NCBI GenBank assembly: GCA_030737835.1
Contig: CM060853.1
Location: forward strand, 21,510,895-21,574,894
Direction: 5' to 3'
DNA: 64,000 nt
From: Acorus gramineus
Taxonomy: Eukaryota > Streptophyta > Magnoliopsida > Acorales > Acoraceae
Part shown: in pieces, positions 26,151 to 62,403 of the stretch
How the letters are laid out: every line of letters starts with the position of its first letter
How positions within the stretch are numbered: position 1 is the first letter of the stretch
Notes under the pieces: generated by a model
What the model was told of the DNA's origin: nothing
Database searches by the model: none
Seen by the model: only the letters and a program-made list of their open reading frames with translations
Program-made: the position numbers and the translations under genes

Positions 26151-26348
26151 GTGAGAGAGTGGGTGGGGAGTGATGGGATGGGAAACGTGGACCGTTGGAT
26201 ATGTTGGGGAGGGTTGGGGAGGGAGGAAGGGTAGGTGGGTGGGATGAGTGGGTAGTGTGTCTGTGGATGTGGGGACCTGGACACGGAAGGCCCTATCAAC
26301 GTGTATGCAGGGTTGGTTGGAAGCGTTAGAATTTGTCCTGCTTTCGCG
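26151..26348 (-). promoter_or_regulatory. F-box gene leader/promoter, pyrimidine-rich on the gene strand
   Basis: Plus-strand G-rich words (GGTGGGTGGG, GGGGAGGGTTGGGGAGGG) make a CT-rich leader for the minus-strand gene. Only about 200 bp separates the start codon from an inserted hAT element. Confidence 0.4.
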
Positions 26349-34345: not shown

Positions 34346-34364
34346 TTTTATTTATTTAATAATA

Positions 34365-36250
34365 ATAATTAACAAAGGATGAGCGGTACAACTGCTGCAT
34401 CCAAGGAAAAAAAAGCCCTCCGGTCTTCTCCGGTGTGATTACATACAATTGACTTCCAAAACAATAGATCGACTACGTTTTTTTAAAGGGTTTTTGTTCA
34501 CGAGTGCCTTTTAAGGCACTTGATAACCTATATTAATTATTAATTTTTTAGGTAATTTAATAAATAAATTATGATATAGTTAATAAAAATAAATGATTTT
34601 TTAAAATACCAATAACACCCCTAATAAATTTATCACATTTTTTTCTTTTTTCATTCCACACCCAATTTTTCCCTTCTATGCATAGGTCTGGTAAACGAGC
34701 CGAGCAGCACGGGCTCATTTAAAGCTTGTTCAGACTCGTTTGATTAGAAAAACGAGTCGAGCTTCAATAATTTTTAAAGTTCAGTTTGTAAACGAGCAGA
34801 GCCCGAGCCAAGCCTAAGCCTAGACGAGCTCGTTGACTTAACAGAAAAAAGGGGAACGAGTCGAGTCGAGCCGAGCCCGAGCTTATGTCACTTTTACATG
34901 TATAAGGTGTTGTGATATGTGAAATGTGACTTCTCAAATGTTAAACAAGTTTTTTTTTTAAGCTAAACGAGTTCGAGTCGAGTCTTGATTCGAGCTTCGG
35001 CTTGGCTTATTTAACAAACGAGCCTATCCGAGCTTCAACCGAGCTTTTCACGAGCCCAACGAGCCGAGCTTAAACACGAAATAAAGCTCACTCCCGAGTC
35101 GAGCTGAGCCGAGCCTGATATTAAATGAGCTGAGCCTGAACAAGTCAAAGCTTAGCTCGTTTGGTTCGTTTACCACCCCTACCCATACACAATGTTTAAA
35201 AATAAAAAGTGTCACAAGCATAAATAAATATTTTCAGGAAAAATGCCTTATATATGTAAAAAAAATATACATGTACCAAACAATTGAACAATATTTTTTT
35301 GTATATAAAGTCAATTTTTTATATATATTATTTTGAGTATTTTATTAGGGGTGTTGTTGGTATTTTAAAAAATATTTTATTTTTTTAGACACATATCATA
35401 ATTAATTTATTGGATTGCCTTAAAAGCTAGTAATTAATATGGGTTAACCAGTACCCTGAGGGCACCCGTTAACAAAAACCATTTTTTAAATGATCCAACA
35501 ATATTAAAATATTTAATATAAGTTGACGTCTGGACTAATTAATTAACTCATTAGATTAATCAAAATTGATGTTTCCTAACAACTATATTTTTTTATTGTC
35601 AAAAGTTCTGTTTTTTTTTTTTTTAATGTGGTCAAATAGAGAGTAGCTTGGTTTGGTATCTCAATACCCATGTATTTATGAGAACAAGTGGATAGAGATG
35701 TAAATTAATTGAGATGGGATAAATGGGAAACGTTAGATTAAGTCTTCTAAATGTTGGATCCAAACTCGAGTTTAAGATTCAAGTGCAAAACCTGTCCTGT
35801 TCACTTAAATCACTTATATTATTGAAATTTAATACGATATATTTATAAAACCAATCATATCATATATTATTATTATTATTATTATACATAAGCATGTATA
35901 AATTTAAGAACATTACATAACATAAATATTTAGTTTATAAGCTAAAAATGATTTTTAAAAAATATTTAAAAATATTTAAAAAATTAGGATTCTTAAAATC
36001 GTTTCCATATAAATTAATAGAACCTGTTTGGTTTTTTTAAAACCCATTGGGTCAAGTTTAGAATGGAGTAACGAAACTAGTCATGGGTTTGAGATAAATT
36101 TATCAAATTAAGATTATTCAAATCCATCCTAACCATTCAATTGCCATCCTAGCACCAAATACCGATTAAAAAAAAATTATCCAAAGATGCTAATTAGTAA
36201 CGAAGAGTGGTAAGTAAGATTCGTTGTTGATCTATATTGAAACATAATTT
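34365..36250 (+). repeat. Copy 1 of the CHS-upstream repeat unit
   Basis: Landmarks in order: CTGCTGCATCCAAG, CTTCTCCGGTGTGATTA, CGACTAC, ATGATCCAACAATATTAAAA, GAGAACAAGTGGATAGAG, CCAATCATATCATATATT, TAGGATTC, CATGGGTTTGAGATAAATTT, GCACCAAATACCGATTAAAA and AACGAAGAGTGGTAAG. The same landmarks recur in the copies ending at 41468 and 49160. A hAT element is inserted at 34683-35181. No coding sequence. Confidence 0.65.
34683..35181. mobile_element. Non-autonomous hAT element (499 bp)
   Basis: Inverted ends TAGGTCTGGTAAACGAGCC and, reversed, TAGGGGTGGTAAACGAACC. Flanking 8-mers TCTATGCA and CCCATACA agree at 5 of 8. The interior is packed with GAGCCGAGC/GAGCTCG words. No transposase. Confidence 0.75.
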
Positions 36251-36454
36251 GTATCTTACTTGATTGATAGTGAGATTGTCACATCATTACAATTAGAATC
36301 ATCTCACAATTAGAATCAAACGGTTACAAATATATCAAATCATGAATGGATAAATGGATCTATTTTATTTGATGAATTTATAACTGTCTGATTGATTAAA
36401 GCACAAAACGAGTACAGAAAAACAAACAGATGATCTAAACCCCTTTATATAAAT

Positions 36455-37165
36455 GAAAAAATATCTAAAAAAATCTTCTAAAAGTTAAAAACACCTAAAA
36501 TTTGGAAACTAAAAAGACTAACATACCCTTATATAATTTTTAAATTAAACTCTTTAATCATATTTAAAACTTTTCATGACCATCATTTAATTAAAAATTA
36601 ATATTTATATAAGAAATAAATTTTATTTGAGAGTGATTTTACATGTTATTAAAAAATTTAAATATGCTATAAAAATTGTTAAAATTATCAAAATTGTTAT
36701 TCATAAATTTACAAAATTTGTTTTTGGATTTTTCCGAACTTTTAAAAGTTTTTCTTAATTTTTTTGTTATTTATATTTTATAAATGCCTTGTATAAGGAT
36801 TTTTTTGTATAATATTAAACATATAAAAGTGTCCCAAAAAACTTTAGAAAGTTTAGAATATCTAAAAATATTTTATAACAAAAAATTAAGAAATTTTTAC
36901 TTTAAATCTTAATATTGTATTTAGTATGCAAAAAATAATAATAAACTTAATGCACAAATTAAAAAATATTTTATTATTTTTAATACTTTTTAATTTGGGT
37001 GTTAAATAATTAAATATATGTGATGATATTTAAATAGTAGATAATATAGAGGTAGTCAGTCATTGTACTTTCTAGACTTTTTAGATATAATTTTAAAAAG
37101 TGACTGATTTAGATATTTTTAACTTTTAAAATATTCTAACTTTTAAAAGATTTTTTAAAGATAAA
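36455..37165. mobile_element. Family-E-like foldback element
   Basis: Left arm AAATCTTCTAAAAGTTAAAA pairs with right arm words TTTTAACTTTTAAAATATTC and GACTGATTTAGATATTTTTA. It lies between copy 1 and copy 2 of the CHS-upstream unit. No coding content. Confidence 0.5.
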
Positions 37166-37475
37166 TTTGGTTCACATTTAGGTATAGGATTGGAGATATT
37201 GTAGTTATTTAGGTACACATTTTGGTATAAGATTGAGTGACTTTTACTTAAATTAGAACATTTGGGTATAGAATTAAATTTGGATACTCAAATTTATTAA
37301 TGTCCTAAACAAATTTTTTTTTCTGTTACCCGATTTATCATAACTCAATTTCTAAAAATAAAAGAATTTTTTATTATGATCCGAGTTACCAGACTCATCG
37401 ATTTGTTTTGTTGCATGCAAGGGCGCATGTGGACATGCTGCATTGTGATACATACCAAGCAGATAATTGATTACC

Positions 37476-37552
37476 AAAAAAAAAAAAAAAAAAAAAGGTA
37501 AATGGTCTAAATACCGGTGAGCCAATTATTCTTTTTTTTTTTTTTTTTTTTT
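37476..37552. repeat. A21 and T21 homopolymers flanking 35 bp
   Basis: 21 A at 37476-37496 and 21 T at 37532-37552, able to pair as a hairpin. This marks the left edge of the roughly 2-kb insertion in copy 2. Confidence 0.75.
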
Positions 37553-37768
37553 GTATCCCTAGATTTTTTTAATTTTTTTTTACCCCTGCAGTGCTCTCCA
37601 TTTTTCTCTTACCCCTCACCAATGCCATCTCATGTTTTACTCCCTAAACTGTCATTTCTTTAATTTTCTCCCTCTCCCCCCAAATTAATTCATCTCTCTC
37701 CAAACCTATTAAACATAAACTACATTTCCCTCCATTTCTTCTCTCTATCCCCCTCAAATGATTCATCT

Positions 37769-37785
37769 CCCCCCCCCCCCCCCCC
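37769..37785. repeat. Poly(C) tract, 17 C
   Basis: Uninterrupted 17-C run within a CT-rich stretch. Confidence 0.9.
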
Positions 37786-40700
37786 AAACCCACCAAACAT
37801 AAACTGTCATTTCTTTCATTTTTTTTTCTCTATCTCTCCCAAATTGATTCATCTCTCCTACAACCAGTAAAAAAATGATTTTTCTCTCCTCGACCCTTCT
37901 CTCTCCCCGGTGAAAAAACAGATCAAGATTGTTGTCGTTGTAGTCGTGATTCCGGCATCAATGATGAAAATTTGGTTGTGGTTCTTTTTTCACCTTAAGT
38001 TTATTCTCTTTGGATTTCTTTAAATGTGGATTTTGTGGGGAAATTTTTTAAAATATTTGATGTTGGGTGATGTTTGGAACAAAAACACAATTTTGTTGGG
38101 TTTCAGTAGTTCTAAGTGGTTTTTGTGTTTAATTTTATTTCTTTTTCCAGATTTTATGTATTAGTAAAAGAAATATGTTGATTTGCATCAACTTGTATGT
38201 TCATTTTTTTTATAAAAAAAAATCCTTTTTGTATTTATGTAAATGTGGATGTTAGTTTTCTTTGATGATTTAGTGATGTTTGAGAAGAAGAAAAAAGTCA
38301 TTTTTTTTGAGGTTTCCATTGGTCCTCATATTAATTTTTTGTGCTTAGTTTGATTTTTTTAGTATATATGCCTTTATAAAACAAATGTGTTGTTTAGTGC
38401 ATTACACATGTATATAATTGTTTATAAAGATTCACATTGTATATCATTAGTTTAATTTCATAGATGATATCACATTTCTGTTCTGTAAATGATAGTTTCT
38501 GTAATTGGTAGTTTTTGTAGTTTTTGTTGTTAAGTGAATGATTCTTGTAAATCATTTATTACATTCTGTAGTTGTTTATAAATTTTCTGTAATTGGTCAT
38601 TTAAATATCTATAAATTAATATTACATTGTTGTAATTGGTCATTACTTTTCTGTAAAGTTGTATGTCTTTAATTTAATTCCATTGGTGATTTTTGTAATT
38701 GATTATATAATGTTGTAGTTTCTGTAATTGTTAAGTACTTCTACGAAAATATTATAGTTGCTAATATTTATATGCTTTCAATTCGATCGGATTCATGTTA
38801 TTATTAATATTGTTCATATTGCCAAATGAATATTTGTGAGGTGTTTGACTGATTGTTGCATCTTTAATATAGCCTAGATAGCGTGTTCTTTGTTACAAAG
38901 CATGTTGAATGTCAAGTTTGAAAGCTTTCAATGGATTCGATTTCACTCAAGAAGACATGAAGAGAATTAAATGAGAGAGAACAACTGATTTTATTAGGAT
39001 AGAAAGACGTCTTCAAACAATTGATATATCTATTTTAATGGTACTTTAGGGATGTATTTATAATCATTTTGTGTACATTAAATGCACTTATTGATGATAA
39101 TGATAATAGTCATTGTTCATTAATATATTATAATGACGTTGGAAATATATTTATAACCATTTTGTGTTTAAAATTATCTTTGTGTACATTAAATGCTTTA
39201 TGTAGTTAACTATTAAATATTTGTAACTATGTATACAATTTCTGTATGTGACACATTATATTTTTGTATTTCTGACTCTGGTTGTAAGTGGTTGTTCATG
39301 TATTATGAAAAGTCAGGGGAAAAAAAAAAGAAAAAAAGACAACTCTGCACGGGTAAATAAAAAATAAAAAAAGTCTAAGAACATAAAAATAATAGAGCTG
39401 CTGGTCCAAGGGCATTTAAGCAATTCACCCAAAAAATAAAGAAAGAAAAAAAAGCTGATAATTATGAAATTATATTACGTGAAATTTGAACATTATTGTT
39501 GGACTAAACTATTACGATTTGAAGATTTTGGAAACTAATAGATCTATAGAATAATAAAAAAAATACAAAAAAATTAACGTGATTTGACAAACTTTACTTT
39601 CGTTCACGGAGTATACCAGATATCAATCCATTATCTAAATTTTTTTTTTATAATAACTAAATAGTAAAAACAAAAACCTTAGAACATTATGAAAACATGA
39701 GATGCGTTTTTAAAATAGCATATCAATAAAAATTAAAAATATCAATACATAAAGCTGCCCCTAGACCTCCCGAGCTAGCCGGACAGCTTGATCCTCACAA
39801 GCTCAGTGAAAAGCTCCACTCCTGTATTCTGATTGTGCGAAAAGTCCACAATACTTACGCACAAGTATCTGACTCCGCAATATATAAACCTATCATGATT
39901 GGAACAATCGTTATCGTGCAAGATTATATATATAATAATAAACAAAGAGAGGCTGTACTGCTGCATCCAAGAAAAAAGGCCGGCCCTCCAATCTTCTCCG
40001 GTGTGATTAAAAACAATCGACTTCCAAAACAATATAGTACAGTTTTTTTTAAAATGATCCAATTAACAATATTAAAATATTATGTGTGTACTAATTAACT
40101 CCGTTTCCTAGCAACATATTTTGTGGTTGTTAAAGGTTTTTTTTTTTGGGCAGGAAATACATCCACCTCCCTTTTTATTTTTATTGGGGGCACCACCTTC
40201 ATAAGCTCACCACCTCTTAGTCTATTAAACACCAAATCCACCATTTTATAAAACCTCCTTACTATATACAACAACCTCACCACGCTTCACACATCATAAC
40301 CCAATTCTCTCTCTTCTCTCTGCTACTTCTCTCATTCACCTCTCCCATTCACTCCCGCTGTGAGGATGCCGACGACAAGCCATCGTGAAGTGTTCCCCTC
40401 ACCCCCACCCCATGAGGTCCTCTCCGTGCCACTCTTGAGGCCGTGAACTCATCTCTCTTGAAATAAATTAATATATCTATTTTTTGAAAATATCTTTTTA
40501 ATCAATTGTTAATTGTAATCTAATGAGTATTATTGTTCATCTTGTAGGTAAGTTAGGACTTTGATAGGGAAAGTTAGGGCTTTGAAAGAGAGCATGGGTT
40601 TTTTGATGTATAAAGCTAGGTTTATTTTTGTTTTTGTTTTTTTTTCCATAATGAAGTGTGTTGGTTGAATTTCAATACATTAGTCAAAAGCTAGGGTTCT

Positions 40701-41223
40701 GTATGAATTTTGGTTTAATTTTCAATAATTTGTATGTTGGTGGCATTGGTTGGAAAAAAAATTCCTCTCATAGAGAAGATTGTTGCATGTTGAATATACT
40801 CATGAGATAAATTAGTATACTGATATTAATATAAAATTGTAAAATGGTTCAATACATATTGTTGATAATTACATTTAAACAATAATATAATTTTAATTTA
40901 TTCATGTTTTATATAACATAATAAGTAAACATAATTGTTTAATTTATAAGCTAAAAAAAAAAATTAGGATTCTCAAACCCGTTTTCTTTTAAATAAAATG
41001 AGACAGAGCGCGTGTTTGGTTCTTTTAAAATCCAATATGAATGAAACGGAACAATTAAACCCGCCATGAATTTGGGATAAATTTAGGACAATTGATTATG
41101 GGGTTTTAAATTGAGATTAATTAAATCCATACCAACCCGTTATTCGCCATCCCTACAATTGGAGCACCAAATACAGATTAAAAAAAATCATCAAGAGATG
41201 CTAATTACTAATTAGCAACGAAG

Positions 41224-41468
41224 AGAGGTAATTAAGATTCGTGGTCTGTATTGAAACGTACGTCACAGTCTCTTAAAACCGGACCACGTGGTTGCATGTA
41301 CATCCCAACGCCCACTAATGAACAACCTTAATTAGGTGATTAACCGTTCACACGCGCGTACGAACGTGCGGAGCTGTCGTTCCCCGCATGATATAAGAGT
41401 AAGCCTGTCAACGGATCAGGTTTGGGTGTGCACGCGTTGGTTAGGAGTCTCTTGCGTGAGGGGTACAT
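41224..41468 (+). repeat. CHS-promoter-like block A1
   Basis: Contains AAACGTACGTCACAGTCTC, GGACCACGTGGTTGCATG (with a G-box CACGTG), AACCGTTCACACGCGC, GAGCTGTCGTTCCCCGC and GTTGGTTAGGAGTCTC. These words also occur in the real promoter at 49726-49830 and in the block at 48958-49160. No coding region follows. Confidence 0.8.
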
Positions 41469-41469
41469 G

Positions 41470-41597
41470 AGCATGTCCACATGCGTACCTCGTAGAAAAC
41501 AAAAACAAATCGATGAGTTTGGTAACTAGGAATCATAATATAAAAATTATATTCTTTTATTTTCAAAAGTCCAGTTCTAACATATTAAAGTAACATT
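41470..41597 (-). repeat. 128-bp inverted-repeat arm 1
   Basis: Exact-length inverted copy of 42032-42159 with about two or three mismatches. It starts AGCATGTCCACATGCGTACC and ends with ATATTAAAGTAACATT. Confidence 0.9.
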
Positions 41598-41841
41598 AGA
41601 GGTAATTAAGATTCGTGCTCTGTATTGAAACGTACGTCACAGTCTCTTAAAACCGGACCAGTGGTTGCATGTACATCCCAACGCCCACTAATGAACAACC
41701 TTAATTAGGTGATTAACCGTTCACACGCGCTTACGAACGTGCCGAGCTGTCGTTCCCCGCATGATATAAGAGTAAGTCTGTCAACGGGTCAGGTCTGGGT
41801 GTGCACGCGTTGGTTAGGAGTCTCTTGCGTGAGGGGTACAT
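41598..41841 (+). repeat. CHS-promoter-like block A2
   Basis: A direct copy of A1 (41224-41468), about 97-98 percent identical by eye. Differences include GTGCTCTG for GTGGTCTG, and GGACCAGTGG for GGACCACGTGG, which destroys the G-box. Confidence 0.85.
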
Positions 41842-42031
41842 CCATGATACTTTTTCACGGTGGGCTGAACTAATAAGAGAGATCTTTTTTTTGGGGGGCG
41901 CTGTCATATTTAATTTTTTTACAGTTCAAAATACAGTTTTATATACTTCGTTTGAAATCTAATGAAGCATATATCTTGTTAGACGATGAATATATTAGAA
42001 CTGTGATAATCATTTGACAATCATGCAATCA

Positions 42032-42159
42032 AATGTTACTTTAATATGTTAGAACTTGACTTTTGAAAATAAAAGAATATAATTTTTATATTATGATTCC
42101 TAGTAACCAAACTCATCGATTTGTTTTTGTTTTCTACGAGGTACGCATGTGGACATGCT
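42032..42159 (+). repeat. 128-bp inverted-repeat arm 2
   Basis: The native-orientation copy: it continues directly into the rest of copy 3 of the CHS-upstream unit and matches copy 2 at about 37330-37450. Confidence 0.9.
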
Positions 42160-42538
42160 ACATTATTATACACACCAATTAAGCAGATAATCATGAAATT
42201 ATATTACGTGAAAATCGAACATTATTGTCGGACCAAACAAATAACTAAACCTTTCATTATTGGAACAAGTGTTATCATGCATGATTTTTTTATAATAATA
42301 ATAATAAAAGAGAGGCTAGACTGCTGCATCCAAGAAAAAAAAGCCCTCCCATCTTCACCTGTGATTAAATACAATCGACTTCCAAAACAGTATCCTACAT
42401 TTTTTTAAATGATCCAACAATATTAAAATATTTAATCTAAGTTGACGTGTGGACTAATTAATTAACTCATCAACAACTATATTTTTTGGTGTTTCATATT
42501 TTTTGGTTGATAAAGTTTTTTTTCTTCTTTTCACGAGG

Positions 42539-42540
<2 letters not shown>

Positions 42541-42581
<41 letters not shown>

Positions 42582-42612
42582 AGGAGAGAGAGAGAGGTGT
42601 ATCTTAGTATTG

Positions 42613-42645
<33 letters not shown>
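42541..42645. repeat. (AT)n/(GA)n/(GT)n compound microsatellite
   Basis: AT repeats at about 42541-42573 and 42625-42645 surround GAGAGA and GTGTGT runs. Confidence 0.9.
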
Positions 42646-43604
42646 GATACATTGGTATCTTAATTAGTACCAATAATGAGAACAAGTGGTTAGAGATGTA
42701 AATTAAAATGAGATGAGATAAATAGATAACATTAACCCGCTGGATTAGTGGATTATATATGTCTCCTCAATGTTGGACCAAAGCCTGTCAGGTTTAGGAT
42801 TCAAGTGTAAAATTTGTTGTATCTATTTAAATCCCTTATATCATTAAAATTTAATATGATATATTTATAAAACCAATCATATCATATATTCAAGGGCGGA
42901 GACAAGGCTGCTGGGGTAGGCCCCCGCCAAGCCTTACATAGGTGTATATGTTACGTCTCTTTTTTTTTGGGTACATATCAATTCCCTTATAAACAATGAG
43001 AAACGTATCAATTATCTGGAGTCCCATCATTTATGAACTTAAGTTGGGCTGTTTTAAGAATTCGCTGTGTTCAATAGGCTATATATCATGTTTTATTTTA
43101 GTATACTTTATTTCATTTGCTAGTATGTATTTTAATTGATGAGTGTATATCTTGTTAGACGATGAATATACCTCATTAAATATTTTCTTATACTTACTAA
43201 AAATTGATTCATTCAACTTAAAATTGAACGATATATATTTTTTATCAAAATATATGTATCATTTGATAATGCTTACTATTTTAAAAAAAATAAAAAAATG
43301 CGTGGTCTTAGTTTTAGTTGATAAAAATGACTAAGTCTAACATTTTTTTTTTTTGGGTAAATTTAAATTTATAAAACAATGATATTTTGAGATTTTTCTA
43401 AAGGTTGAATTAATATTTTAAAGTTTTTCTAAAAAATATGGACCGGACTGTATTAAGGTTTTTATAATAAAATTGGATTGAGTTAGTATTTTAAAAAATT
43501 TCTAACAAAATCTAGGCCGGGCTTGGCCCACCCAAACTCTTGTGTCTGCCCTTGCTTGCGCACGTGTGAGCTTTGAAGGTGGTTTTACAAAGTCTCAACT
43601 AAGG

Positions 43605-43815
43605 TAGTGTTTAATAGTGAGATTGTAAAATTGATTTTTTTGTAAACGCTGGATTTCAAATTGATTTTGCATAAAGCTAACTTCACCAATTTTTTTAAAT
43701 CGCAGCTTTTGAGCACTATTTATATGAAAATCTATCTACAAAAAATTATGATTATAAAACTGTTTAGTTACACAATTTTAGAATCAACTTCGTGCAAACA
43801 GAACAGCAATACAAA
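43605..43815. mobile_element. hAT-like MITE (copy d)
   Basis: AAGGTAGTGTTTAATAGTGA at the left resembles the reverse of the copy c right end. Internal words TTGTAAAATTGATTTTTTTG, GATTTTGCATAAAGCTAAC, AAATCGCAGCTTTTGAGCAC and AAAACTGTTTAGTTACA match the other copies. Confidence 0.55.
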
Positions 43816-44939
43816 AAATTAGTTGACTTTCTTGTAAAAAATTAAATATATAGATACCTCATCATGTACAATGTTAGCATAACTAATCCTCCCCATCCTA
43901 TGTGTAATCTTCAATTCCTTTCTACTTGCTTTGTTTTTTTCACTAAGCTCTTGTTAAAAACAACATACATTTTTGCAAGGTTATGACCAAATAACTTCTG
44001 ATTGTGTTTTTCAAAAAATATTGTCATACCTTGGACTCAGGGGAGCTCCAATAAATTTTTGCTTAGTCCCATTGATCTTTATAGACTCTAGCTTCCCCAA
44101 CTTCAAAAGGAGTTTTCTCTTTGAGGAAGTATTCATTGTACAATCGATGTTTCCAATTCTTCCAACAAACTGAGACAGACTTCATGACCTAGTCTTTACC
44201 ATCTTCGGGACAGTTGAACTTGTTCTATATTATTCAAATAATTAAACATAAAATAATCACATTTTCAAATATCAATTAAATAAAATATCATTCCACTAAC
44301 ACGTACCTAAATACAATTATTATATTCAGACACTCAACTAAAAAAAAAACCAAAATCTACGAGATACACTATAATTACTTGAAAGTTGCTTCAAATAAAA
44401 TGCCTAGGGTAGCTGATCTCCATATTAAAACCAAACCAAAAATACCCATAAAAATTATTTTGTTTTATCTTTGTCATTCATGTTTCTTTCACCTTATTAA
44501 TGATAAAAAAGATATAACAATTCATTGAAAGAAGTAAAAATAATATTATGATGCACAAATGAATAATTTGATATTTTATGAATAAACCCAAATACACGAT
44601 ATGTGTGACGATAAAAACTATTTATAGATAAAAATAAATAAATAAAATAAATTTATTAGTGAGTGTTGCAACAAGTCACAAATAAAAAAGAATTAAAAGA
44701 GAAGAGGAGGACCTGGTGGTTGTTTTGCCGCGCGGGATTGGAGGACACAGAGGAGATGACGGAGATGGATGGGACGTAGAGGAGAATAGGAGATGGTGGG
44801 GGTTTAATATCACATATTTATTTGAATCTTTGGTGGTGGGTTGGTGTAATGTAAAACGGAAAAGAGAGATAAACCTTTTTTTTTTTTTCTTGTTTTATGG
44901 GGAAGCACTCATGGCCAAAGAATTGTAGTAAATCAGGAG
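43816..44939. other. Gene-free spacer
   Basis: AT-rich with no recognised gene. A short G-rich block at about 44700-44790 and another at 45350-45490 sit on either side of the CACTA-like remnant and may be one sequence that it split, but neither matches a known protein. Confidence 0.4.
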
Positions 44940-45346
44940 AAATACTGATTTTTTACCTCTTGATTCACATATATTTTATAAGATTTATAATTACAATATG
45001 ATTATATGGATACTAAATATAGCTTTTAAATTTAATTGTGAACATGTTTTTTGTGACATTCCATTAGTGTTTGTCACCTAATAAATACAAATTGTAACAT
45101 TCTAATTATGTTTGTCACCAATAAATATCATTTGTAACTTTTTTAACACATGTGTCACAATAATTGATATTTATGTTACACACATTTTAAGCAACTGTTA
45201 CAAAAATAAAATTTTGTGACAAATAAATATAGGGGTCACCAAAAACTATGTTTATTGTGACATACATTCTTGACCGTCACCTAACAATAGTTTTAGGTGA
45301 CAGCTATTCAAAATGTATGTCACCAAAACCTTGTTTCGTTGTAGTG
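44940..45346. mobile_element. CACTA-like element end with subterminal GTGACA repeats
   Basis: The right border reads CGTTGTAGTG, which reversed is CACTACAACG, the CACTA terminal type. Upstream are more than ten short words TTTGTCACC, TTGTGACA, TTTGTAAC and GTGTCACAA in both orientations. The matching left terminus was not found. Confidence 0.5.
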
Positions 45347-45562
45347 TGTAGAGTGGGGGAGGGAGTGACACGGGAGATGGAGGAGTTGCTGCCCAAGTCA
45401 AAGATGATGACGGCGGATGTGGAGGAGGTGTTTATGGGATGCAATGATGATGCGGAGATGGGGATGAGTTGGGTGATGAAAACGATGTAAAAAATCTAAA
45501 TCTCAAATAAATATAAAATAATACAGGGAAAGAAGATAAACAAAAATATAAAGAAAGACTAT

Positions 45563-45792
45563 GGGTGCGTTTGGATGTGAGATTGAAACAAATAGATTAT
45601 TAAAATCTTATGTTTCAAACTTAGCTTTTGAAAAACTATGTTTTATTAGATTTTCAACCGTAAGATTTTTTAACCTAAAAAGGAACATTGTGGTTTGAAA
45701 AGCTGAACAATAAAAATGTGTTTGGATCTGAGTTTGAAAATTTTTAATTTTTCTAACGCAAAATCTATCTAAACTCATATCCAAACAGACCC
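45563..45792. mobile_element. Harbinger-type MITE (230 bp)
   Basis: Inverted ends GGGTGCGTTTGGATGTGAG and, reversed, GGGTCTGTTTGGATATGAG. Adjacent trinucleotides TAT and TAC approximate a TWA target duplication. AT-rich interior without coding content. Confidence 0.75.
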
Positions 45793-46000
45793 TACATCTC
45801 CAATATTCTATATAATAAAAAGAGATTACATGAATATTATTTATAGACTCAATGACTTAAGTTTGGATAGAAACAAATCTTAATAGAATTTGTTAATTAA
45901 TTGCGAGAGAGATCTTTTGGATTTATAGTTTGGGTTTTTGTAAGAATTTCTCATTGAAGGGATGCGATTTTGATTTTCTTGCACCTCCCTCTTCTTCTCC

Positions 46001-46286
46001 AACTCCCTCCTCCAAGCCTCCCCCGATGACATCCTTCGCCTGTTCGACGAAATGCCTTACTAAAACATCTTCTTCTACATCACCCTCATCGACTTCTTCA
46101 TCACCTCTGACGACCCCCTCCCTACGGTCTTCTCCTTCCCCACCACCCCTTCCTAGGACTCCTAGTACAACGCGATCATCTCGCGATGCAATGCCTTGCA
46201 AGGACGTCTCGACGTAGACACGCGTCATTCACGGGTGCGTCTGCTGTGGGAGGCCCGAAGAGGCTTTTAAGTTCTTCAAGCAATGA
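46001..46286 (+). pseudogene. PPR-protein pseudogene, 5' part
   Basis: In one frame the sequence reads SLLQASPDDILRLFDEMPY, then after stops FYITLIDFFI, DTRVIHGCVCCGRPEEAF and KFFKQ. These are pieces of pentatricopeptide-repeat motifs (LFDEMP, N-x-FSYNTLI, G..EEAF.FF..M). PPR proteins bind organelle RNAs. At least four in-frame stops show it is dead. A LINE is inserted after KFFKQ; a PPR-like remainder follows at 47616. Confidence 0.6.
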
Positions 46287-47615
46287 ACCGCCGCGGTATG
46301 CAAGACTAAAAAGGAGGGCGGATTGGGGGTGTTGGACCTTGGCATGATGAACCGAGCCCTACTGTCAAAGTGGGTTTGGAGATGGATCAATGGGTGCAAT
46401 CAGTTATGGTGTCACCTCTTTCGAGATCGATATGGGGGAGGGGGCATAGGCGAGAGCCGCTGGCCTGGGATGAACGCGCGCGCCACACAACTCGCTAAAG
46501 GGCTGTTCGCGGACCAAGGGGCGCTAGAGACGGTCATTGGTTGGAAGCTTGGCAACGGGTGCAAAGTCCACTTCTGGATGGACCGGTGGAGCGGGGAGGA
46601 GCGACTCAGTGAATTGGCACCCGACATCTATCGACTGGCTACCCGGAAGGAGGGCACGGTGGCGGAGTTCCTCACACCGGGGTCAGGGGGGTGTTTGATC
46701 GAATTGGCGCATGCCAGACTTAGTGTGTCGGAGACAACGTAGCTCACAAAGCTGTTGACACGTCTGGAAAGCCAGAGCCTAAGCGAGGATGCGGAAGACC
46801 AGGTCGCCTGCAGGCCGCGGAAGTTGAGGAAGCACTCAGTAAAAAGTGCTTACAACTGGTAGCGTACAGGGCTGATAGGGAACGCAGGGATGCATGCAAA
46901 GTTCTTTGAAATATGGAAACCTAAGATCCCTATCAAGGTTAAGGTGTTCATGTGGTTCTTCTACTTAGAACGACTAATCACGAGAGAGTACAGGGCACGG
47001 TAGGCTCCAGCGGACTCGACAGCATGCGGTCTATGCTCGGCGGCCACGGAGAGCCTTGCACACCTGTTCTGCGTATGCCAAATCACACAGGAATTTTGGG
47101 ACAAGGTGGGAAGAGAGACGGGTATCCGCACCACATTCCAAACGGTGGACGAGATGTGGGAGGCTGGAAAAGAAATGAAGAGGGCGGGGGACTGCAGTGC
47201 CAAAGCAGTGATCTCGCAATCTATTGTTCCGGCGGGGGCATAGACGATCTGGAAAACAAGGAACGACGTCGTTTTCAACAAGGTGCGAGTGTACCAAGAA
47301 TACATGTGGGATACGTTTATAAAATGCATACACGACTGGGGAAGATACATTGTCGAGGCGGGCGAGATCCAGGTTCGAGGAGGGCGTCTGGGACTGGTGA
47401 GGCTCGCTCACAAGGTAATCGACAAGGAGGGGACGGTGTCCCTCCGTGGTTCATAGCTCCTCGAACTTGAGATGCCTTGTTGGTTCTTTTTTTTTCTCAC
47501 TCATTATGTTCTTTTATGTTTAATTCTGTTCCCTTCATTCAGAATTTGTAATTCGAGTTCAATAATAAAATCGGGTAGTAACCATCTACTTTTTCAAAAA
47601 AAAAAAAAAAAAAAA
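46287..47615 (+). mobile_element. 5'-truncated LINE with poly(A) tail and 16-bp TSD
   Basis: GTTCTTCAAGCAATGA occurs at 46271-46286 and again at 47616-47631, flanking the insertion. The body encodes the end of a LINE ORF2 after the RT domain: KKEGGLGVLDLGMMNRALLS, WKLGNGCKVHFWMDRWSG, then, after a frame change and a stop, KIPIKVKVFMWFF, CGLCSAATESLAHLFCVC (the CxxC...HxxxxC zinc finger) and TIWKTRNDVVF. AATAAAATCGGG and about 20 A (47596-47615) end it. Stops and frameshifts make it inactive. It was 5'-truncated by incomplete reverse transcription. Confidence 0.9.
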
Positions 47616-47740
47616 GTTCTTCAAGCAATGATGACGCTTTTGTGCTTGTGATAGCTGCGCACGCGTGGATTTGGGCGGCATTCGATGTAGGGGGCAAGTT
47701 CATGCGTGGAACATGGAGGCAACGCAAGGAAAGTGGAAGG
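47616..47740 (+). pseudogene. PPR-protein pseudogene, 3' part
   Basis: After the repeated target site, frames give DAFVLVIAAHAW and FDVGG, with GQVHAWNM in another frame. This resembles the PPR consensus D.FTLV.V..AC..LGA.D.G.QVHAW. Frameshifted and short. Confidence 0.45.
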
Positions 47741-48221
47741 GCATTTTTGTCATGTGCGGGATGATTTTTTTACATTTTTTTAAAATTTCATAATTTTAGG
47801 GCAAATGTTGAAATATTTTGTATTTTGTTAAAAAAAATTTACATTTTGTTAAAATTTTATAATTTTTTTTACATTTTGTAAAATTCTATAAGTAACATAA
47901 TATTCTGTGAATATTCCTCACAAATTAAATAAAAAATTTAAGTCAAAGGGTATTTATTTAACCAGAGAAAGGGGGGTTATGTAGATTTTTAGAAAAAATA
48001 AAAGAAAATATGAATATTAGTTCACTTTCAGATGGTTGTATACATTTTTTTTCTTGTAAAAAATATTTAAAAACGTTTAAAAACTCAGGATTCTTGAACC
48101 CCTAGGGACAAGTTTAGGGAATGATGAAGCCACCACCTTCGGCGCAAGGGGATCCCATGCCCCCTAAAACTTTTTTTTCTTTCTAAATTTTTTTTTTTTT
48201 TTGATAGATTGATTTTAATTA

Positions 48222-48500
48222 GGATAATGTTATGTACAGTTTTATTTTCAGTTCTAATTCCAGTTTATACGTGTTTTGATTTTTTTTTAAATAATATATT
48301 TTATCTAATGAAGTACATATTTTTATAATAAAATGAAACATATATTCCAATGAATTGCATCGATGCATCTATAGAAAATGTAAGAAAAAATTATTGAAAT
48401 ATAAACCTCATTAATATAAGTATATGCGCCGCCATTAATTTTCTATCAACGCATATGAGACTGGAATTGGAGCTAGATAAAAATGGTGCATAATAGCATT
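48222..48500. mobile_element. Family-F MITE, uninterrupted copy
   Basis: Begins AGGATAATGTTATGTACAG and ends near GTGCATAATAGCATTCT, which reversed resembles the start. It is the intact counterpart of the interrupted copy at 17538-19430. It is inserted within copy 3 of the CHS-upstream unit. Confidence 0.6.
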
Positions 48501-48957
48501 CTTTTAATTAGAACCCATAGGTCTCGGGTCCCACCTATACAAAAAATTCTTAAAAAGATATAGCCCACCAATAAAATAAAATAAAACATTACATTTATGT
48601 TTTGAAATTTTTTTGTGAATCACCGATTTGAAATTTATCATATTGTTTTAAAATATGACAATTATGTTTTAGAATTACTCAGTAATATGTTTTATATGGA
48701 TGTCTTTATTTCATTTTATAGATATTTATTTTTAATCTATGTTATTGAAATTAAAAAAAAAACATAATGATATAATTTTAAAAAATATTTATAAGTCACA
48801 TTAGACCCCCTTTTATAAAAATCATAGCTCTTGTCACTGGAAGTCAGTCATGGGTTTGAGATAAATTTAACAAATGAATATTAATCAAATCCTTCATAAC
48901 CTGTTTAGTTGCCATCCCTAGCACCAAATACAGATTAAAAAAAAATCACTAATTAGT

Positions 48958-49160
48958 AACGAAGAGAGGTAGGTAAGATTCGTGGTCTGTATTGAAACGT
49001 ACGTGTATTGAAACGTACGTCACAGTCTCTTAAAACCGGACCACGTGGTTGCATAACGCCCACTAATGAACAACCTTAGTTAGGTCATTAACCGTTCACA
49101 CGCGCGTACGGACGTGCCGAGCTGTCGTTCCCCGCGACTTCGTTGGTTGGGAGTCTCTCG
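48958..49160 (+). repeat. CHS-promoter-like block (copy 3)
   Basis: Shares with A1 the words AAACGTACGTCACAGTCTC, GGACCACGTGGTTGCAT, ACCGTTCACACGCGCGTACG and GAGCTGTCGTTCCCCGCG. It contains a short tandem duplication TGTATTGAAACGTACG. It carries a G-box CACGTG near 49043. Confidence 0.8.
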
Positions 49161-49725
49161 CGCGCGCGTGAGCTATGAAACTAATATTAAGCCAGTAAAT
49201 TTTTCAAAAAAATATCTTAAATATTATGATAAGTATCTACTCTATTGACATGCTTAACTGATATATGGTTGGCCATACCACCGTTAGGATGGAAAATTAA
49301 GTTTTTTTTATGTTTATATCTGTTTTAGTATCGGTAAAAAATAAGTGATTTTTTATTTGATGTGTTTTTAATTATTCTAATTAAAAAACATAATAATAAA
49401 ATTTTTATTGTTTGGTTAACTATTGATAAACTGTGGATAAAATATGAAAATAGGGCGTGCATATGAATTTATAAATGGTGAAAAAATAATTAGATATGTG
49501 AATTCCTTGATTTATAAGAGTTGACGACAGTGATTTGATAGTGAGACCCGCATAATCAAATGAGTTGAATAGCTTGGAATAATTTAATTTTAGTGTATAA
49601 GAGAAATAATTATGTTATTTTATTTCAGTTAATTATAATATACATATTCTCATTTATTCCAGTATTCCAAACATTAATTTTATCACTGTGCCACCTTCAA
49701 TGCCCCGACCAAACATGGGTTAGTG
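49161..49725. other. AT-rich spacer between promoter block 3 and the CHS promoter
   Basis: No gene or element ends recognised. Confidence 0.5.
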
Positions 49726-50050
49726 TTTAAACCGTTCACACGCGTGCACGCACGTGCCGAGCTGTCCTTCCCCGCGGATGCGTTGGTTAGGAGTCTCTCG
49801 CGCGGGTGAGAGCTATGAAACTAATATAAATGGATGGATATATAGTTTGCCACACCACGCGCGAGTGACAACCATTCAACCCAACAAACCAACCCCCCTA
49901 AAAAATTATTAAAAAACAATTAAAAAATACAAGGTTTCCTCCCTTATATTAAGCCCCACAACACATCCCACACTCCTCACAATCCAAAGCTTTGCCTTTC
50001 CATAGATATCTCTCTTTGTCTGTCTTCTGAACTTTCACTTGCGTTCTTTA

Positions 50051-50079: not shown

Positions 50080-50081
<2 letters not shown>

Positions 50082-53000
50082 GGTGAGTGTGGAGGAGATC
50101 AGGAAGGCTCAGAGGGCGGAGGGTCCGGCGACGATCATGGCGATCGGGACAGCGACGCCACCGAACGCGGTAGACCAGAGCACCTACCCGGACTACTACT
50201 TCCGCATCACCAACAGCGAACACAAGGCCGAACTCAAGGAGAAGTTCCGTCGCATGTGTAAGCCCATCCTCGTAAATCGTAATCTTTTATCGCACACTGT
50301 TTGGTTGTGCCTGCATGGAAAAAAAACAATGGTTTAGTTTAATGTTTCTTTAGTATTAAAATAACATTTTCACTTAAAAACTATTTTTGAAGTTGGAGTT
50401 GACTGGTGTGCGTTTAGGGGAAAAAAATAAAATCACCGATTAGAAAGCTATTTTTAACAAAAAAAAAAAAACTATTTTTTATAATTAAAAAATTATTTTT
50501 TATATACGAAAATAACAGGTGATGTTTGGGAACAAGCACAGATTATCATTTTTCTATCATCCCTATAAAGAAAAACTCTTCAATTTTTTTTTTTTATGGG
50601 TCTATTTGGATATGCGATTGAATTGCAGCTTTGTTGAAATTCAGTCTATTTTTGAAAAACATTATTTTCAAAATCTTTTAAAGCGTTAAAAATTTAATAA
50701 AAAAGTTAAAAATATGTGAAGTTTATAAAAAAAAAACTGTTTGGATCATTTCACATTTTTGCGTCAGCGTGAACCAGTTTTTACCTTAAACTATATTCTC
50801 CTTGAATTCTTAAAAATCTTTTAATTTTTCATAAACCGAGACATTTACGACAAGGCATTACACTTAAATATCTTTTAACAAGGACTGATCACTAGACTTA
50901 ATGTTATTGTTGCAGGCGAGAAGTCGATGATAAAGAAGAGGTACATGCACCTGACAGAGGAGATACTGAAGCAAAACCCAAGCATATGCGAATACATGGC
51001 CCCCTCCCTCGACGCGCGCCAAGACTTGGTCGTCGTCGAAGTCCCCAAACTCGGCAAAGAAGCCGCCATCCGCGCCATCAAAGAGTGGGGCCAACCCAAA
51101 TCCAAGATCACCCACCTCATCTTCTGCACCACCAGCGGCGTCGATATGCCCGGCGCCGACTACCAGCTCACAAAGCTCCTCGGCCTCCGCCCCTCCGTCA
51201 AGCGCCTCATGATGTACCAGCAGGGGTGCTTCGCCGGGGGGACGGTCCTCCGTGTCGCCAAGGACCTCGCCGAGAACAACCGCGGCGCGCGCGTCCTCGT
51301 CGTCTGTTCTGAGATCACCGCCGTCACCTTCCGCGGGCCCTCCGACACCCACCTCGACAGCCTCGTCGGCCAGGCCCTCTTTGGCGATGGCTCGGGCGCG
51401 CTCATCATCGGCGCGGACCCGATCGATGGGGTTGAGAGACCCATCTTCGAATTGGTGTCAGCTGCGCAGGTATTAAGCTGGTCTATTATCCAAAAAAACA
51501 AAAAAATCTAAATCCAAAAATCAGAAATACATATATTATAAAATTATATAAGTTTATATTATATATTTTTCATATTTATTATCTTGTATAATTAATAATA
51601 TATTATATTACTATTAAATTTTTAGTACACGGTACGAGAAAAGAGAGAATAAATCTTAAAATCTTAATTTTAATTTTGTATCTCTTTAAGGCCCGTTTCA
51701 AAACGGGTTGGGTTTGAAGGAAAATGTATCTTCACATATTTTGAAAAATTAGCTTTCAAATACTTTTATGTAAAAATATGTCTACATCTTTTAATGATTA
51801 AATTGTATCTTTTTTTCTGTTTAGATATGAGTTTGGGTAACATAGCTTCCTATAAACTCAAAAACTCCCAAAACCTATTTTTCAAATAGTAATATTTAAA
51901 TATAATAATTATCTAAAAATATGTATCTAAATCCAAAAATTAATATTAATTTATATATGAATTTCTAGGATATAGCATGTATATTTTTTTTTTTAGTCAT
52001 GATACCCAGGCCCCACAATATAAGCCCCACTCACAAACCCCATGAGGTTGATTTGTTTGATTAATTGACTTTTTCAAAAAATGGTAAAATGATAAAATAC
52101 AAATTTGCCCTTCATTAAAAATTTGTCTCATTAACCCAAATCCCCCCATTTTTTCTATTCAGTTATGACTATATGAATCTTAAAATTCATTTACATATTT
52201 TAAATTTGAATTTTAAAATCATTACCTGAATTATAATTGAACCTAGATTACACAAAAATTATCGAAAATGTTTTCATCAAAATCCTTCAAACGACCCATT
52301 TTTTCTAGGTATTTATTGTATTCAAATTTAAATAAAAAACACATATAGTTAACATATGAAACAGTTACATTTTATATTGATAGTTACAAATACATTTTTT
52401 AAATGTTTACATCTCTCACAACGATTTGTTACATTTATATAAAAACTGATACATTTACATAGATGGAACAAACAATTACATTTACTTAAATGTCAAACAG
52501 TTATATTTACTCTTTGAAATCATGTATTTCAATTTCTAGTGCACTGCCTTCCAAAGAAAATGTATCAGAATCCTCTGCAAAAGTATGTACTTCACTATTA
52601 CATTTATACGTCATTTCTATTTGCATTGTTAAAAGAAATGCACAATATGAGATAATGTTACATTTCAGAGTATTACATTTATAAATGTAACAAAATTGTA
52701 AATGAGTATCCGAGTTCGGGAGTCTAATATAAACATCACACGAACCATTAACAATTAAATGTAACAATATTAAAAATTACATTTATGAAATCATAACGAA
52801 ATAAATATAAAAAAAGTGTGAAATAGTGATCAAAACATAAAAAAAAATTCATTTTCTGAATTGAAACATGTAACATAGATTGAATATTTGATCATCAAAA
52901 ATTTAATTTAAAAAATCATATGACTTTCATTCAATAAGATCAAAAAATGATAAAAAAATAATTGACAAACCTGATCCGTAAGATATTGTTGGAGATCCAA

Positions 53001-53996
53001 CTCGATAAAGAACAAATCAGTTTTTCAAACTTCTCGGGATTAAAATTTCGGGACTGCTACGAATATGTTCATCGTAAATTATTAGGTTACTCTTACCTAC
53101 ATAAAATAGGAATGAATGATTTTACACAATGCAAGGAAGAAGAAATACAGTAATTAATAAATCAAACTGTTTTCTTTGTTTAGAGGTGGTTATCAATTAG
53201 AGGGTATAATAGATAATGTTCTATTACCACATCATGGGGCCTGTGATGGGGTCTAGAAAGTTAGGGCTTAAGAATCATTATTATTATTTTTTAATCAAAT
53301 ATTGGCATATCTATTTTAAAAAACAGGCTATGTCTAAAATTAGAGAGGTATAATGAGAAGATGAAAATGAGAAAAAAAAAAAAAAAAAGGAAGGAAGGAA
53401 GGAAGGAAAGAAAAAAAATAAGGGGGGTGCAGAGCCGGGTACATAAGGGATCTATCCAAACCAGTACGATATCTTGACCTATCTTAGATAAGGGATCTAC
53501 CCAGCTGGGTAGATATAGTAAGGATATTGACGTATACGATCCGGCTTATTCGCAGACGATACTCCCGGACAGCGACGGCGCCATTGACGGACACCTGCGC
53601 GAGGTGGGTTTGACGTTCCACCTCTTGAAGGACGTTCCGGGGATCATATCAAAGAACATCGAGAAGAGCCTCGTCGAGGCGTTCGCGCCGATCGGGATCT
53701 CCGACTGGAACTCGCTTTTCTGGATCGCGCACCCGGGGGGGCCAGCGATACTGGACCAGGTGGAGGAGAAGCTGGGGCTGAAGGAGGAGAAGCTGCGCGC
53801 AACGAGACAGGTGTTGAGCGACTACGGGAACATGTCGAGCGCGTGCGTGCTGTTCATACTCGACGAGATGAGGAGGAAGTCGAAGGAGTCGAACGCGGCG
53901 ACGACGGGGGAGGGGCTCGAGTGGGGGGTGCTTTTCGGGTTCGGGCCGGGACTTACTGTTGAGACTGTCGTGCTTCACAGCGTCTCCGCCGTCTAG
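50080..53996 (+). CDS. CHS: Chalcone synthase
   Basis: Exons 50080-50257, 50916-51469 and 53556-53996 give 390 aa. The enzyme condenses p-coumaroyl-CoA with three malonyl-CoA to naringenin chalcone, the first committed flavonoid step, in the cytosol/ER. All landmarks fall at standard CHS numbering: nucleophile C164 in [11 protein letters not shown]215 in [11 protein letters not shown]303 in WIAHPGGP, N336 in YGNMSSAC, the CHS-specific T197 and G256, and the GFGPG loop at 372-376. This supports a true CHS rather than a stilbene synthase or divergent type III PKS. Intron 1 splits the Cys60 codon (T|GC), as in nearly all plant CHS genes. A second, 2086-bp phase-0 intron after Gln244 is unusual. 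Both splice junctions give an uninterrupted CHS sequence ([18 protein letters not shown]). GC-rich throughout. Confidence 0.97.
51470..53555 (+). other. CHS second intron (2086 bp), possibly insertion-derived
   Basis: Begins GTATTAAGCTGG and ends CCGGCTTATTCGCAG. CGCAG also ends exon 2, so the intron body is flanked by a 5-bp direct repeat. Just inside, ATTAAGCTGG and, reversed, AATAAGCCGG form an imperfect inverted repeat. The interior is AT-rich with recurring GTTACATTT-type words at 52360-52790 and no protein domains. Confidence 0.6.
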
Positions 53997-60842: not shown

Positions 60843-62403
60843 CGTCTCTCTCTCGCTCGTTCGCTCGCTCGCTCACGAGCGCGCGCTTTTAAGGGTTGGT
60901 TCGCGTGGATTGATGTCGGTCATATTTGAGTACTGACACGCTGGACTCCAACCATCTTGTAACATCCTGCAATTTTTATTTTTTATTTTTTCTTCGGAAG
61001 TGAATATTTCCTCACTCTTAATTTTAAACCCACCAACCCAAAAAAAAAACATCTTAGGGTGATGGTTTTGAAAAGATGAGAGGGCGGATAGAAGGAAAAA
61101 AGAAAAGGTAGGAGAGGGTGGCGACTGGAGGGTGCGATTGCGATGACGGCGACAGCGATCAAAGAATATTAGAAAAGGGTCAGGATAGAGAAATAAAGAG
61201 GGAGAGAGAGCAGAGGATGATAGGGTGGCGAGACAGAGAGGGTGGAGTAGAGGTGGGTGGAGGGCGCGACTCTCCCTCTATCTTTCTCTCCCTCTCTTTC
61301 TCACCCTTTTCTTTCCCTTTATCTATCTCTCTACCCCACCCCTTCTCTCATCTGACCACTCCCACACCCTCCGGCCACTACCATCTCTCGCTCTTCTTTT
61401 CTTTACCTTTTATCTCCTTTCTCACATTTCCAAACCCACCACTCCGAAAAAAATTTGGATGGTGGGTAGTCAAGACAGTTTTATAAATCGGATGATGTCC
61501 ACCTAGTCTGTTTTCTCATTAAAAAAATCATATGTATTTATTTAGAATATATGTGTTCATTGTATGCTTTTTAAATGAATGTACAACATTTTTAGAGTAG
61601 TAAAACAAACTAAAAATAGAGTTGGATACATTGGTATTTTTATTATAAACCAAATAATATTACATACGATTCAAGTTATATTCTCATGTTCAATCTCCAC
61701 GTGTTTATACTTTTTTATGTATATATTTAATGTAACAAATTATATTTTTTTTATAAAATAAAGTACTTATTCCAAGAAATTATATATATGAATTCTTTTA
61801 TGATATATTACTCACAGTGGGACTATAACCAGAACTATTTATAACACGATCTTTTATGAATTTTGTTTATAATTATTGAGATATTTGTATCTTTATCTTT
61901 ATTGAAAATGAATTTTCATGTAATGATGAAGTTTAATTGAATGATCATGTGATTATTAAAGACATGAGCTGATCTAATAGAAAAAATTAAAAAGTGGAAT
62001 CAACCCTTCAAAGCTTTTCTTATTTCTTAGAGATATATTAGAAACATTATAAATTTATTTAATTTGATAATTATAATTAATCATGTGATATCATTGAATT
62101 TATACAGTATATGATATGAACACATATAATATTATAATACATTATTTTTGAGACACATGTATGAAACTGATATGGAATTTTTAAAATAATTTACCGATTA
62201 ATTTTGTGGATGACGCTTTTTTCTTTTCTTTGTTATTTTTTTAATCTGATTAAATTTTATATTTCTGATTTTGAAAATGTGTCACCTCATTAAATTAACA
62301 TACGGTTTCTAAACAATGGATCAAAATCTTTTTTTACCTGCAATAAAATAATATAAACAATTTAAACTTTATTGTAAAGTATATTGTTAGAGCATTTTTA
62401 TTG
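60843..62403. other. GT14 upstream region and gene-free spacer
   Basis: Immediately upstream of the GT14 ATG the leader carries CTCGCTCGTTCGCTCGCTCG-type repeats on the plus strand. A purine/pyrimidine-rich stretch (GAGAGA then CTCTCT runs) covers about 61190-61400. The rest to 62403 is AT-rich without recognised genes. Confidence 0.5.

What the first reader, a model, noticed from the sequence alone, without database searches (positions are those of the whole stretch)
34365..49160. Three degenerate tandem copies of the CHS upstream region and no accompanying coding sequences
At least ten landmark words recur in the same order in units ending at about 36250, 41468 and 49160. Copies 2 and 3 end in a G-box-bearing block shared with the active CHS promoter at 49726. 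This may be the remains of a CHS tandem array whose coding parts were lost, or repeated duplication of a promoter. The promoter blocks stay more similar to each other than the surrounding DNA seems to.
Basis: seen in the sequence. Interest (0 to 1): 0.7.

Follow-up and report, generated by a model that had tools for sequence, protein, structure and literature searches.

The report
Tripled promoter upstream of plant CHS
Upstream of a plant pigment gene (chalcone synthase) lie decayed tandem copies of that gene's own promoter without any gene attached, and the copy nearest the gene keeps promoter parts that the gene-adjacent piece lacks, so this looks like ordinary promoter duplication with a possible, untested, regulatory consequence.

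Summary
The repeats are real. Three collinear copies of one unit, riddled with transposons (c1 34352-36250, c2 37325-41468, c3 42029-49281), lie head to tail upstream of an intact 390-aa chalcone synthase gene (ATG 50080). The gene's own promoter carries only a short fourth piece (c4, about 49712-49858). Blocks f, a, b and e matched nothing else in the plant's 398.6-Mb assembly; about 340 bp inside the unit is a high-copy MITE. The end block really is CHS promoter: GGTAGGTAAGANTCGTGG occurs exactly twice in the genome, in c3 and 333 bp upstream of the closest CHS paralog (93% aa). No convincing CHS exon, intron or 3'-flank remnant was found between copies, and the c2/c3 and c3/c4 intervals are almost wholly dispersed repeats. 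Tandem duplication of the promoter segment alone is therefore favoured over a decayed CHS gene array. In c2/c3 the promoter block is 96% identical against about 85% elsewhere; exchange between copies is the likely cause. Of the upstream copies only c3 keeps a CCTACC box together with a G-box and close MYB site, so c3 may still serve the gene (inferred, untested). New member of a known kind (tandem promoter duplication); moderate interest.

The parts
34352..36250 (+). Copy 1 (c1): blocks a, b, c, d and the start of e; e core absent; interrupted by 34485-35484
34485..35484 (.). Element with about 145-bp inverted ends (81%) and a 9-bp flanking repeat TTTTTTAAA; MULE-like by recalled criteria; nested in c1
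35766..36107 (.). High-copy dispersed MITE-like sequence inside the unit (c/d); homologous parts in c2 and c3, so older than the duplications (inferred)
   Evidence: 38 of 41 matches elsewhere; 40 of 248 candidates scored
36444..37167 (.). High-copy dispersed element filling most of the c1/c2 interval
   Evidence: 40 of 1455 candidates scored
37325..41468 (+). Copy 2 (c2): f, a, b, d, e with insertions or replacements at about 37475-39445, 39515-39870, 40148-40905; G-box 41285
41470..41600 (-). Inverted copy of the start of f (42029-42159), 97.7%
41598..41841 (+). Second copy of e in c2 (c2b), 97.5% to 41224-41468; G-box lost by a 1-bp deletion
41842..41996 (.). High-copy dispersed element that makes up 155 of the 187 bp between c2b and f of c3
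   Evidence: 40 of 41 matches elsewhere; 40 of 706 candidates scored
42029..49281 (+). Copy 3 (c3): f, a, b, c, d, e, split by large insertions (about 42895-48050 and 48120-48842); runs past its TATA equivalent (49260-49281 matches CHS 49837-49858, 19 of 22)
   Evidence: (0 of 500 shuffles)
48911..49200 (+). e block of c3: CCTACC (minus strand, 48968), G-box 49042, MRE AACGCCC 49055, CCTAAC (minus strand, 49079)
49276..49705 (.). High-copy MITE separating c3 from the gene-proximal piece; matches cover 49276-49719, most end by 49697
   Evidence: 42 of 44 matches elsewhere; 40 of 4447 candidates scored
49712..49858 (+). c4, the CHS gene's own proximal promoter: G-box 49751, CCTAACC (minus strand, 49785), TATAAA 49825; no upper half of e
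50080..53996 (+). Intact CHS gene: exons 50080-50257, 50916-51469, 53556-53996; 390 aa

Best explanation
The feature is a locus-specific tandem duplication of the promoter segment (f to e) of this CHS gene, not of the gene. One promoter-only duplication followed by unequal crossing-over would give c1-c2-c3; a separate small duplication of the e core would give c4 beside the gene. Later the array filled with MITEs and other insertions, c2 underwent a local rearrangement (e and inverted f copied), and the e blocks of c2 and c3 were probably homogenised by exchange. SHOWN: the copies, their order, the uniqueness of f, a, b and e, homology of e (c2, c3) to the paralog's promoter, absence of convincing CHS remnants, the identity change-point. 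INFERRED: that the duplications never included coding DNA; that exchange rather than selection keeps e similar; and the working role (odds about 0.35 on its own), namely that c3, 0.8-1.2 kb upstream of the ATG, still acts with c4 as a split CHS promoter, supplying sites that c4 lacks, while c1 and probably c2 are decaying relics.
For: Unit at this locus only: f-a-b 7 of 7 matches; d-e 4 of 7, the other 3 touching only the d part. GGTAGGTAAGANTCGTGG occurs twice in 398.6 Mb, in c3 and in the C11 CHS promoter in gene orientation, reversed-pattern control 0; about 0.015 expected by composition. e of c3 and of c2 against the C11 promoter: 0 of 648 control windows as good, each; best 18-base match 17 of 18, reached by 0 of 648 windows, 4 had 16; profile top hit E 0.01, next 4.8. 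No convincing CHS remnants; c2/c3 and c3/c4 intervals almost wholly dispersed repeats. Change-point at 41145/48910, 84.3% to 96.2%, 0 of 2000 shuffles. Mosaic: d2 has c1=c3 at 11 sites and c2=c3 at 4; d2r+e0 has 2 and 13; Fisher p 0.0025. Site map read against the CACNNG(N1-100)ANCNNCC layout of PMC4473980 (passages).
Against: Against the C11 promoter, c1 end (10 of 648 windows as good), c4 alone (11 of 648) and c4+leader (2 of 648) are weak, and c2b does not align in register (13 of 300 shuffles as good). The profile hit has a bias term as large as its score (9.9 and 10.1 bits). The 18-base word was chosen after the match was seen. f, a and b have no detectable counterpart upstream of the C11 gene, so the ancestral unit is not established. 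One weak match of the c1/c2 interval to the CHS leader/exon-1 stretch beat most shuffles (6 of 200 as good); it is A+T-rich and lies in the dispersed element. Of the other two blocks, a gives c1=c3 3, c2=c3 14 and b gives 3 and 1, so the mosaic rests mainly on d2; values for a depend on the alignment. Unit edges are blurred by insertions, so event counts are inferred. No expression, chromatin or relatives' data.
Confidence: 0.68

Rival explanations
1. Remains of a tandem CHS gene array: whole genes with promoters were duplicated and later the coding parts were deleted, leaving promoters.
For: c3 runs past its TATA equivalent into leader-like sequence (49260-49281), as a former complete promoter would. 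CHS-like genes occur in clusters elsewhere in this genome (C5, C32). Clean deletions can leave nothing. A 33-base A+T-rich match of the c1/c2 interval to the CHS leader (6 of 200 shuffles as good).
Against: No convincing exon, intron or 3'-flank remnant in any interval. The c2/c3 spacer is 187 bp, of which 155 are a dispersed element; its match to intron 1 of the C11 CHS gene (62 bp at 81%) is explained by that element, which also lies at unrelated loci. The c3/c4 spacer is about one MITE. Several clean deletions are needed, unless coding was lost once before re-duplication.
Confidence: 0.15
2. Selection, not exchange, keeps e similar: the e blocks of c2 and c3 are both active CHS enhancer modules under constraint.
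For: e 96% v 86% elsewhere (6 of 155 v 74 of 513 mismatches); c3/c4 core 4 of 46 v flanks 19 of 78 mismatches, p 0.033; 17 of 18 bases kept between c3 and the C11 paralog.
Against: The high identity covers some 200 contiguous aligned sites from 41146 on, beyond any motif; c2 lost CCTACC and c2b its G-box; relationships look mosaic; indels of 16 and 9 bp are tolerated.
Confidence: 0.12
3. Silencing locus: the promoter repeats, with the 41470-42159 inverted repeat, make small RNAs that dampen CHS, as in b1 paramutation.
For: Tandem repeats unique to the locus upstream of a pigment gene; 41470-42159 folds into a stem of 131-bp arms with an e copy in its loop (z -29.8 on 20 shuffles). The b1 repeats both raise reporter expression and silence (PMC3798267 abstract).
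Against: The stem is f, not the promoter core; no transcript or small-RNA data; copies are diverged; the gene is intact.
Confidence: 0.05
4. The unit is a dispersed transposon that happens to lie beside CHS.
For: 35766-36107 is a high-copy MITE-like repeat.
Against: f, a, b and e matched only this locus, and e is homologous to another CHS promoter.
Confidence: 0.02

Closest known systems
Maize b1 tandem repeats (paramutation; PMC3798267, abstract and section list seen)
   Same: Tandem repeats carrying regulatory sequence upstream of a flavonoid-pathway gene; 853-bp unit per section title
   Different: b1 repeats are near-identical and about 100 kb upstream (recalled); here three diverged, transposon-split copies ending in the gene's own promoter block; no epigenetic data
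Cotton RLC1 promoter, two 228-bp tandem repeats (PMC3812142, abstract and section list seen)
   Same: Promoter segment tandemly duplicated beside an anthocyanin-pathway gene; light-responsive
   Different: Allelic duplication in a MYB gene promoter with a tested effect; here older, larger, decayed, effect unknown
Soybean I locus, CHS inverted repeat cluster (PMC3804491, start of abstract in a listing)
   Same: CHS locus with repeated DNA and an inverted repeat
   Different: There the repeats hold CHS genes and the siRNAs target CHS mRNA; here no coding DNA was found
MYB/bHLH cis layout CACNNG(N1-100)ANCNNCC of anthocyanin gene promoters (PMC4473980, passages seen)
   Same: c3: CACGTG then AACGCCC 7 bp on; c2: 16 bp on
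   Different: c4 has CACGTG, but the nearest same-strand ANCNNCC downstream is 131 bp on, past the TATA

Membership tests
Tandem promoter (cis-regulatory) duplication | Head-to-tail copies of a gene's promoter region beside that gene | tested here: met
   e homologous to the CHS promoter in cis and on C11 (c2 and c3 pass, c1 end and c4 alone do not)
Tandem promoter (cis-regulatory) duplication | No coding sequence within the repeated unit | tested here: met
   CHS coding. Other genes were not searched for systematically; a PPR-like remnant seen by eye lies in the large insertion in c3
Tandem promoter (cis-regulatory) duplication | Altered expression of the gene | not testable with these tools
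   no expression data
Relic of a tandem CHS gene array | CHS exon, intron or 3'-flank remnants between units | tested here: not met
   the one intron-like match is a dispersed element
Dispersed transposon family | Unit present at many unrelated loci | tested here: not met
   met only for the interior MITE
Paramutation-type repeat (b1-like) | Repeat-derived siRNA and heritable trans silencing | not testable with these tools
   only a hairpin-forming inverted repeat seen

The most novel reading that the evidence does not exclude
The CHS promoter has been split by its own duplication: the gene-adjacent piece lost the upper half, and the neighbouring copy c3 (with c2 as spare) became an obligatory upstream module of CHS, still homogenised by exchange; in its boldest form the array with its inverted repeat also feeds small RNAs back on the promoter, as at maize b1.
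Probability: 0.15. Interest if true: 0.65.

Novelty: new member of a known kind. Interest (0 to 1): 0.4.

Why it matters
CHS opens the flavonoid pathway, and its promoter is a textbook system. A natural array of gene-less promoter copies, with a second CHS gene in the same genome whose promoter gives an outgroup, allows a direct test of how duplicated promoters decay, exchange sequence, or become upstream modules.

Tried and rejected
High-copy transposon reading: rejected for f, a, b and e, kept for the interior MITE. CHS coding or intron remnants: weak, mostly low-complexity matches only (whose blastn list was cut in the middle). The c2/c3 spacer matches intron 1 of the C11 CHS gene (62 bp at 81%), which at first looked like a CHS remnant; the same stretch matches an unrelated C5 locus (21 of the loci held were searched) and 40 of 41 genome matches lie elsewhere, so it is a dispersed element. 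f as a former CHS 3' flank: no (164 of 500 shuffles as good). Leader sequence after c1 or c2b: none (c1 361 of 500; c2b an 8-bp match, 19 of 500; spacer 438 of 1000; c1/c2 interval 6 of 200, A+T-rich). c3 49030-49090 against 49690-49730: no (385 of 500). CHS leader at 49690-49726: no (370 of 1000). f/a/b and left c upstream of the C11 gene: no. More unit copies within 10 kb on either side of the window: none; five short matches (23-251 bp) in repeat-like parts. F-box and Branch protein pieces in the 40-kb C11 region: none. A second promoter copy in that region: none. Paper searches for gene-less promoter copies at a CHS or anthocyanin locus: listings only, 15 of 118 and 12 of 673 papers shown, none such among them; weak evidence.
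Full report
SETTING. The window is plant DNA from an unnamed 398.6-Mb genome in 137 contigs (C7:21510895-21574894). An intact CHS gene lies on the + strand: three exons, 390 codons, both Pfam chalcone/stilbene synthase domains.

OBSERVATION. Self-BLAST and MAFFT show one collinear unit, blocks f-a-b-c-d-e, in three copies. c1 34352-36250 lacks f and the e core; c2 37325-41468 lacks the left part of c; c3 42029-49281 has all blocks. c2 carries a second e copy (97.5%) and an inverted copy of the start of f (97.7%). The gene's own promoter, c4, shares only the lower part of e (c3/c4 81.5% of 124 sites; core 42 of 46). c3 also shares 22 bp beyond the TATA region with c4 (19 of 22; 0 of 500 shuffles), with about 63 bp of extra sequence before it.

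IS IT A TRANSPOSON? Genome searches: f-a-b, 7 of 7 matches at this locus; d-e, 4 of 7 here, and the other 3 (68-79%) touch only the first 199 bp; in both of 6 candidates were scored. c-d of c1: 41 matches, 3 here and 38 elsewhere, all 38 within 35766-36107 (40 of 248 candidates scored, so the left part of c is less well tested). That stretch is a MITE-like repeat already in the ancestral unit. The c3/c4 interval is a high-copy MITE (42 of 44 matches elsewhere), most of the c1/c2 interval is another dispersed element, and 155 of the 187 bp between c2b and c3 are a third (40 of 41 matches elsewhere). Blocks f, a, b and e are thus specific to this locus.

IS IT CHS PROMOTER? The closest CHS paralog is on C11 (93% aa; 364 of 389 residues, fourfold-site distance 0.38 from 55 differences in 184 sites). 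Its promoter aligns with e of c3 (48921-49149 to -379..-171) and of c2 (0 of 300 shuffles each; 0 of 648 real-DNA windows each). Other pieces are weaker: c1 end 3 of 300 shuffles and 10 of 648 windows; c4+leader 0 of 300 and 2 of 648; c4 alone 11 of 648; c2b 13 of 300 and out of register. A profile of the e copies ranks the C11 promoter first in about 145 kb that left out 34-50 kb of the window (E 0.01, next 4.8; score 9.9 with bias 10.1 bits). The best 18-base match is 17 of 18; none of 648 windows reached 17, four reached 16. GGTAGGTAAGANTCGTGG occurs exactly twice in the genome: c3 and the C11 CHS promoter, in gene orientation (about 0.015 expected). The word was chosen after seeing the match, but its confinement to the two CHS promoters is not explained by chance.

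GENE ARRAY OR PROMOTER ARRAY? No convincing CHS exon, intron, leader or 3'-flank remnant lies between units. Two matches argued otherwise. A 33-base A+T-rich match of the c1/c2 interval to the CHS leader (6 of 200 shuffles as good) lies inside the dispersed element. A 62-bp match of the c2/c3 spacer to intron 1 of the C11 gene belongs to the dispersed element. Once these elements are set aside, about 30 bp remain between c2b and c3, and next to nothing between c3 and c4. Promoter-only duplication needs the fewest events; a lost array cannot be excluded.

HETEROGENEITY. c2/c3 identity changes at 41145/48910 from 84.3% to 96.2% (0 of 2000 shuffles). Three-way site counts, c1=c3 against c2=c3: d2 11 and 4; d2r+e0 2 and 13 (Fisher p 0.0025); a 3 and 14; b 3 and 1. 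Block a depends on the alignment, so the mosaic rests mainly on d2. I read it as exchange between copies; selection on e is the rival.

HOW IT MAY WORK. Site map: c3 has CCTACC (H-box-like, name recalled), G-box, and AACGCCC 7 bp after the G-box; c2 has G-box and AACGCCC 16 bp on, no CCTACC; c2b lost its G-box; c1 has none of these; c4 has G-box, CCTAACC (minus strand) and TATAAA, but no same-strand ANCNNCC within 100 bp after the G-box. PMC4473980 (passages) reports, for Ipomoea, little transcription without either site type, and weaker promoters at wider spacing. The inference, untested, is that c3 still supplies sites that c4 lacks. The hairpin-forming inverted repeat leaves a silencing reading open at low probability.

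KNOWN OR NEW. Tandem promoter or upstream repeats with regulatory effect are known (cotton RLC1; maize b1; abstracts). This is another case by structure, older and more decayed, with an informative paralog. Two paper listings showed no like case at a CHS gene (15 of 118; 12 of 673), which is weak evidence. In this revision the odds of the lost-array reading were lowered from 0.17 to 0.15 because.

Noticed in passing
51470-53555: Second CHS intron (2086 bp, GT..AG) is absent from the C11 paralog and is flanked by a 5-bp direct repeat CGCAG (51465-51469, 53551-53555), so that the AG acceptor lies in the repeated target: it looks like intron gain by insertion. PMC3036070 (passages) says CHS genes have one intron except in Antirrhinum, and names two-intron or three-intron relatives in Physcomitrella and Polygonum. 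The genome search of its end did not complete.
   Followed up: partly
41470-42159: Inverted repeat with 131-bp arms (97.7%) folds into a strong hairpin with an e copy in the loop.
   Followed up: partly
46289-47616: Insertion with poly-A and a long target duplication (AGTTCTTCAAGCAATGA on both sides), LINE-like by eye, inside what looks by eye like a PPR-gene remnant.
   Followed up: no
42895-43556: Element with inverted ends CAAGGGCGGAGAC / GTCTGCCCTTG (by eye) that begins the large insertion in c3.
   Followed up: no
25020-26297 (-), 55114-60872 (-), 3071-4489 (+): F-box/Kelch gene, two Core-2/I-Branching enzyme pieces, and a UDP-glycosyltransferase gene (Pfam).
   Followed up: no
L029, L032, L033, L037, L041, L042 (C5); L026, L034-L036, L040, L043, L044 (C32): Clusters of CHS-like genes, 55-71% identical in the matched pieces, three pieces with an in-frame stop.
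   Followed up: no
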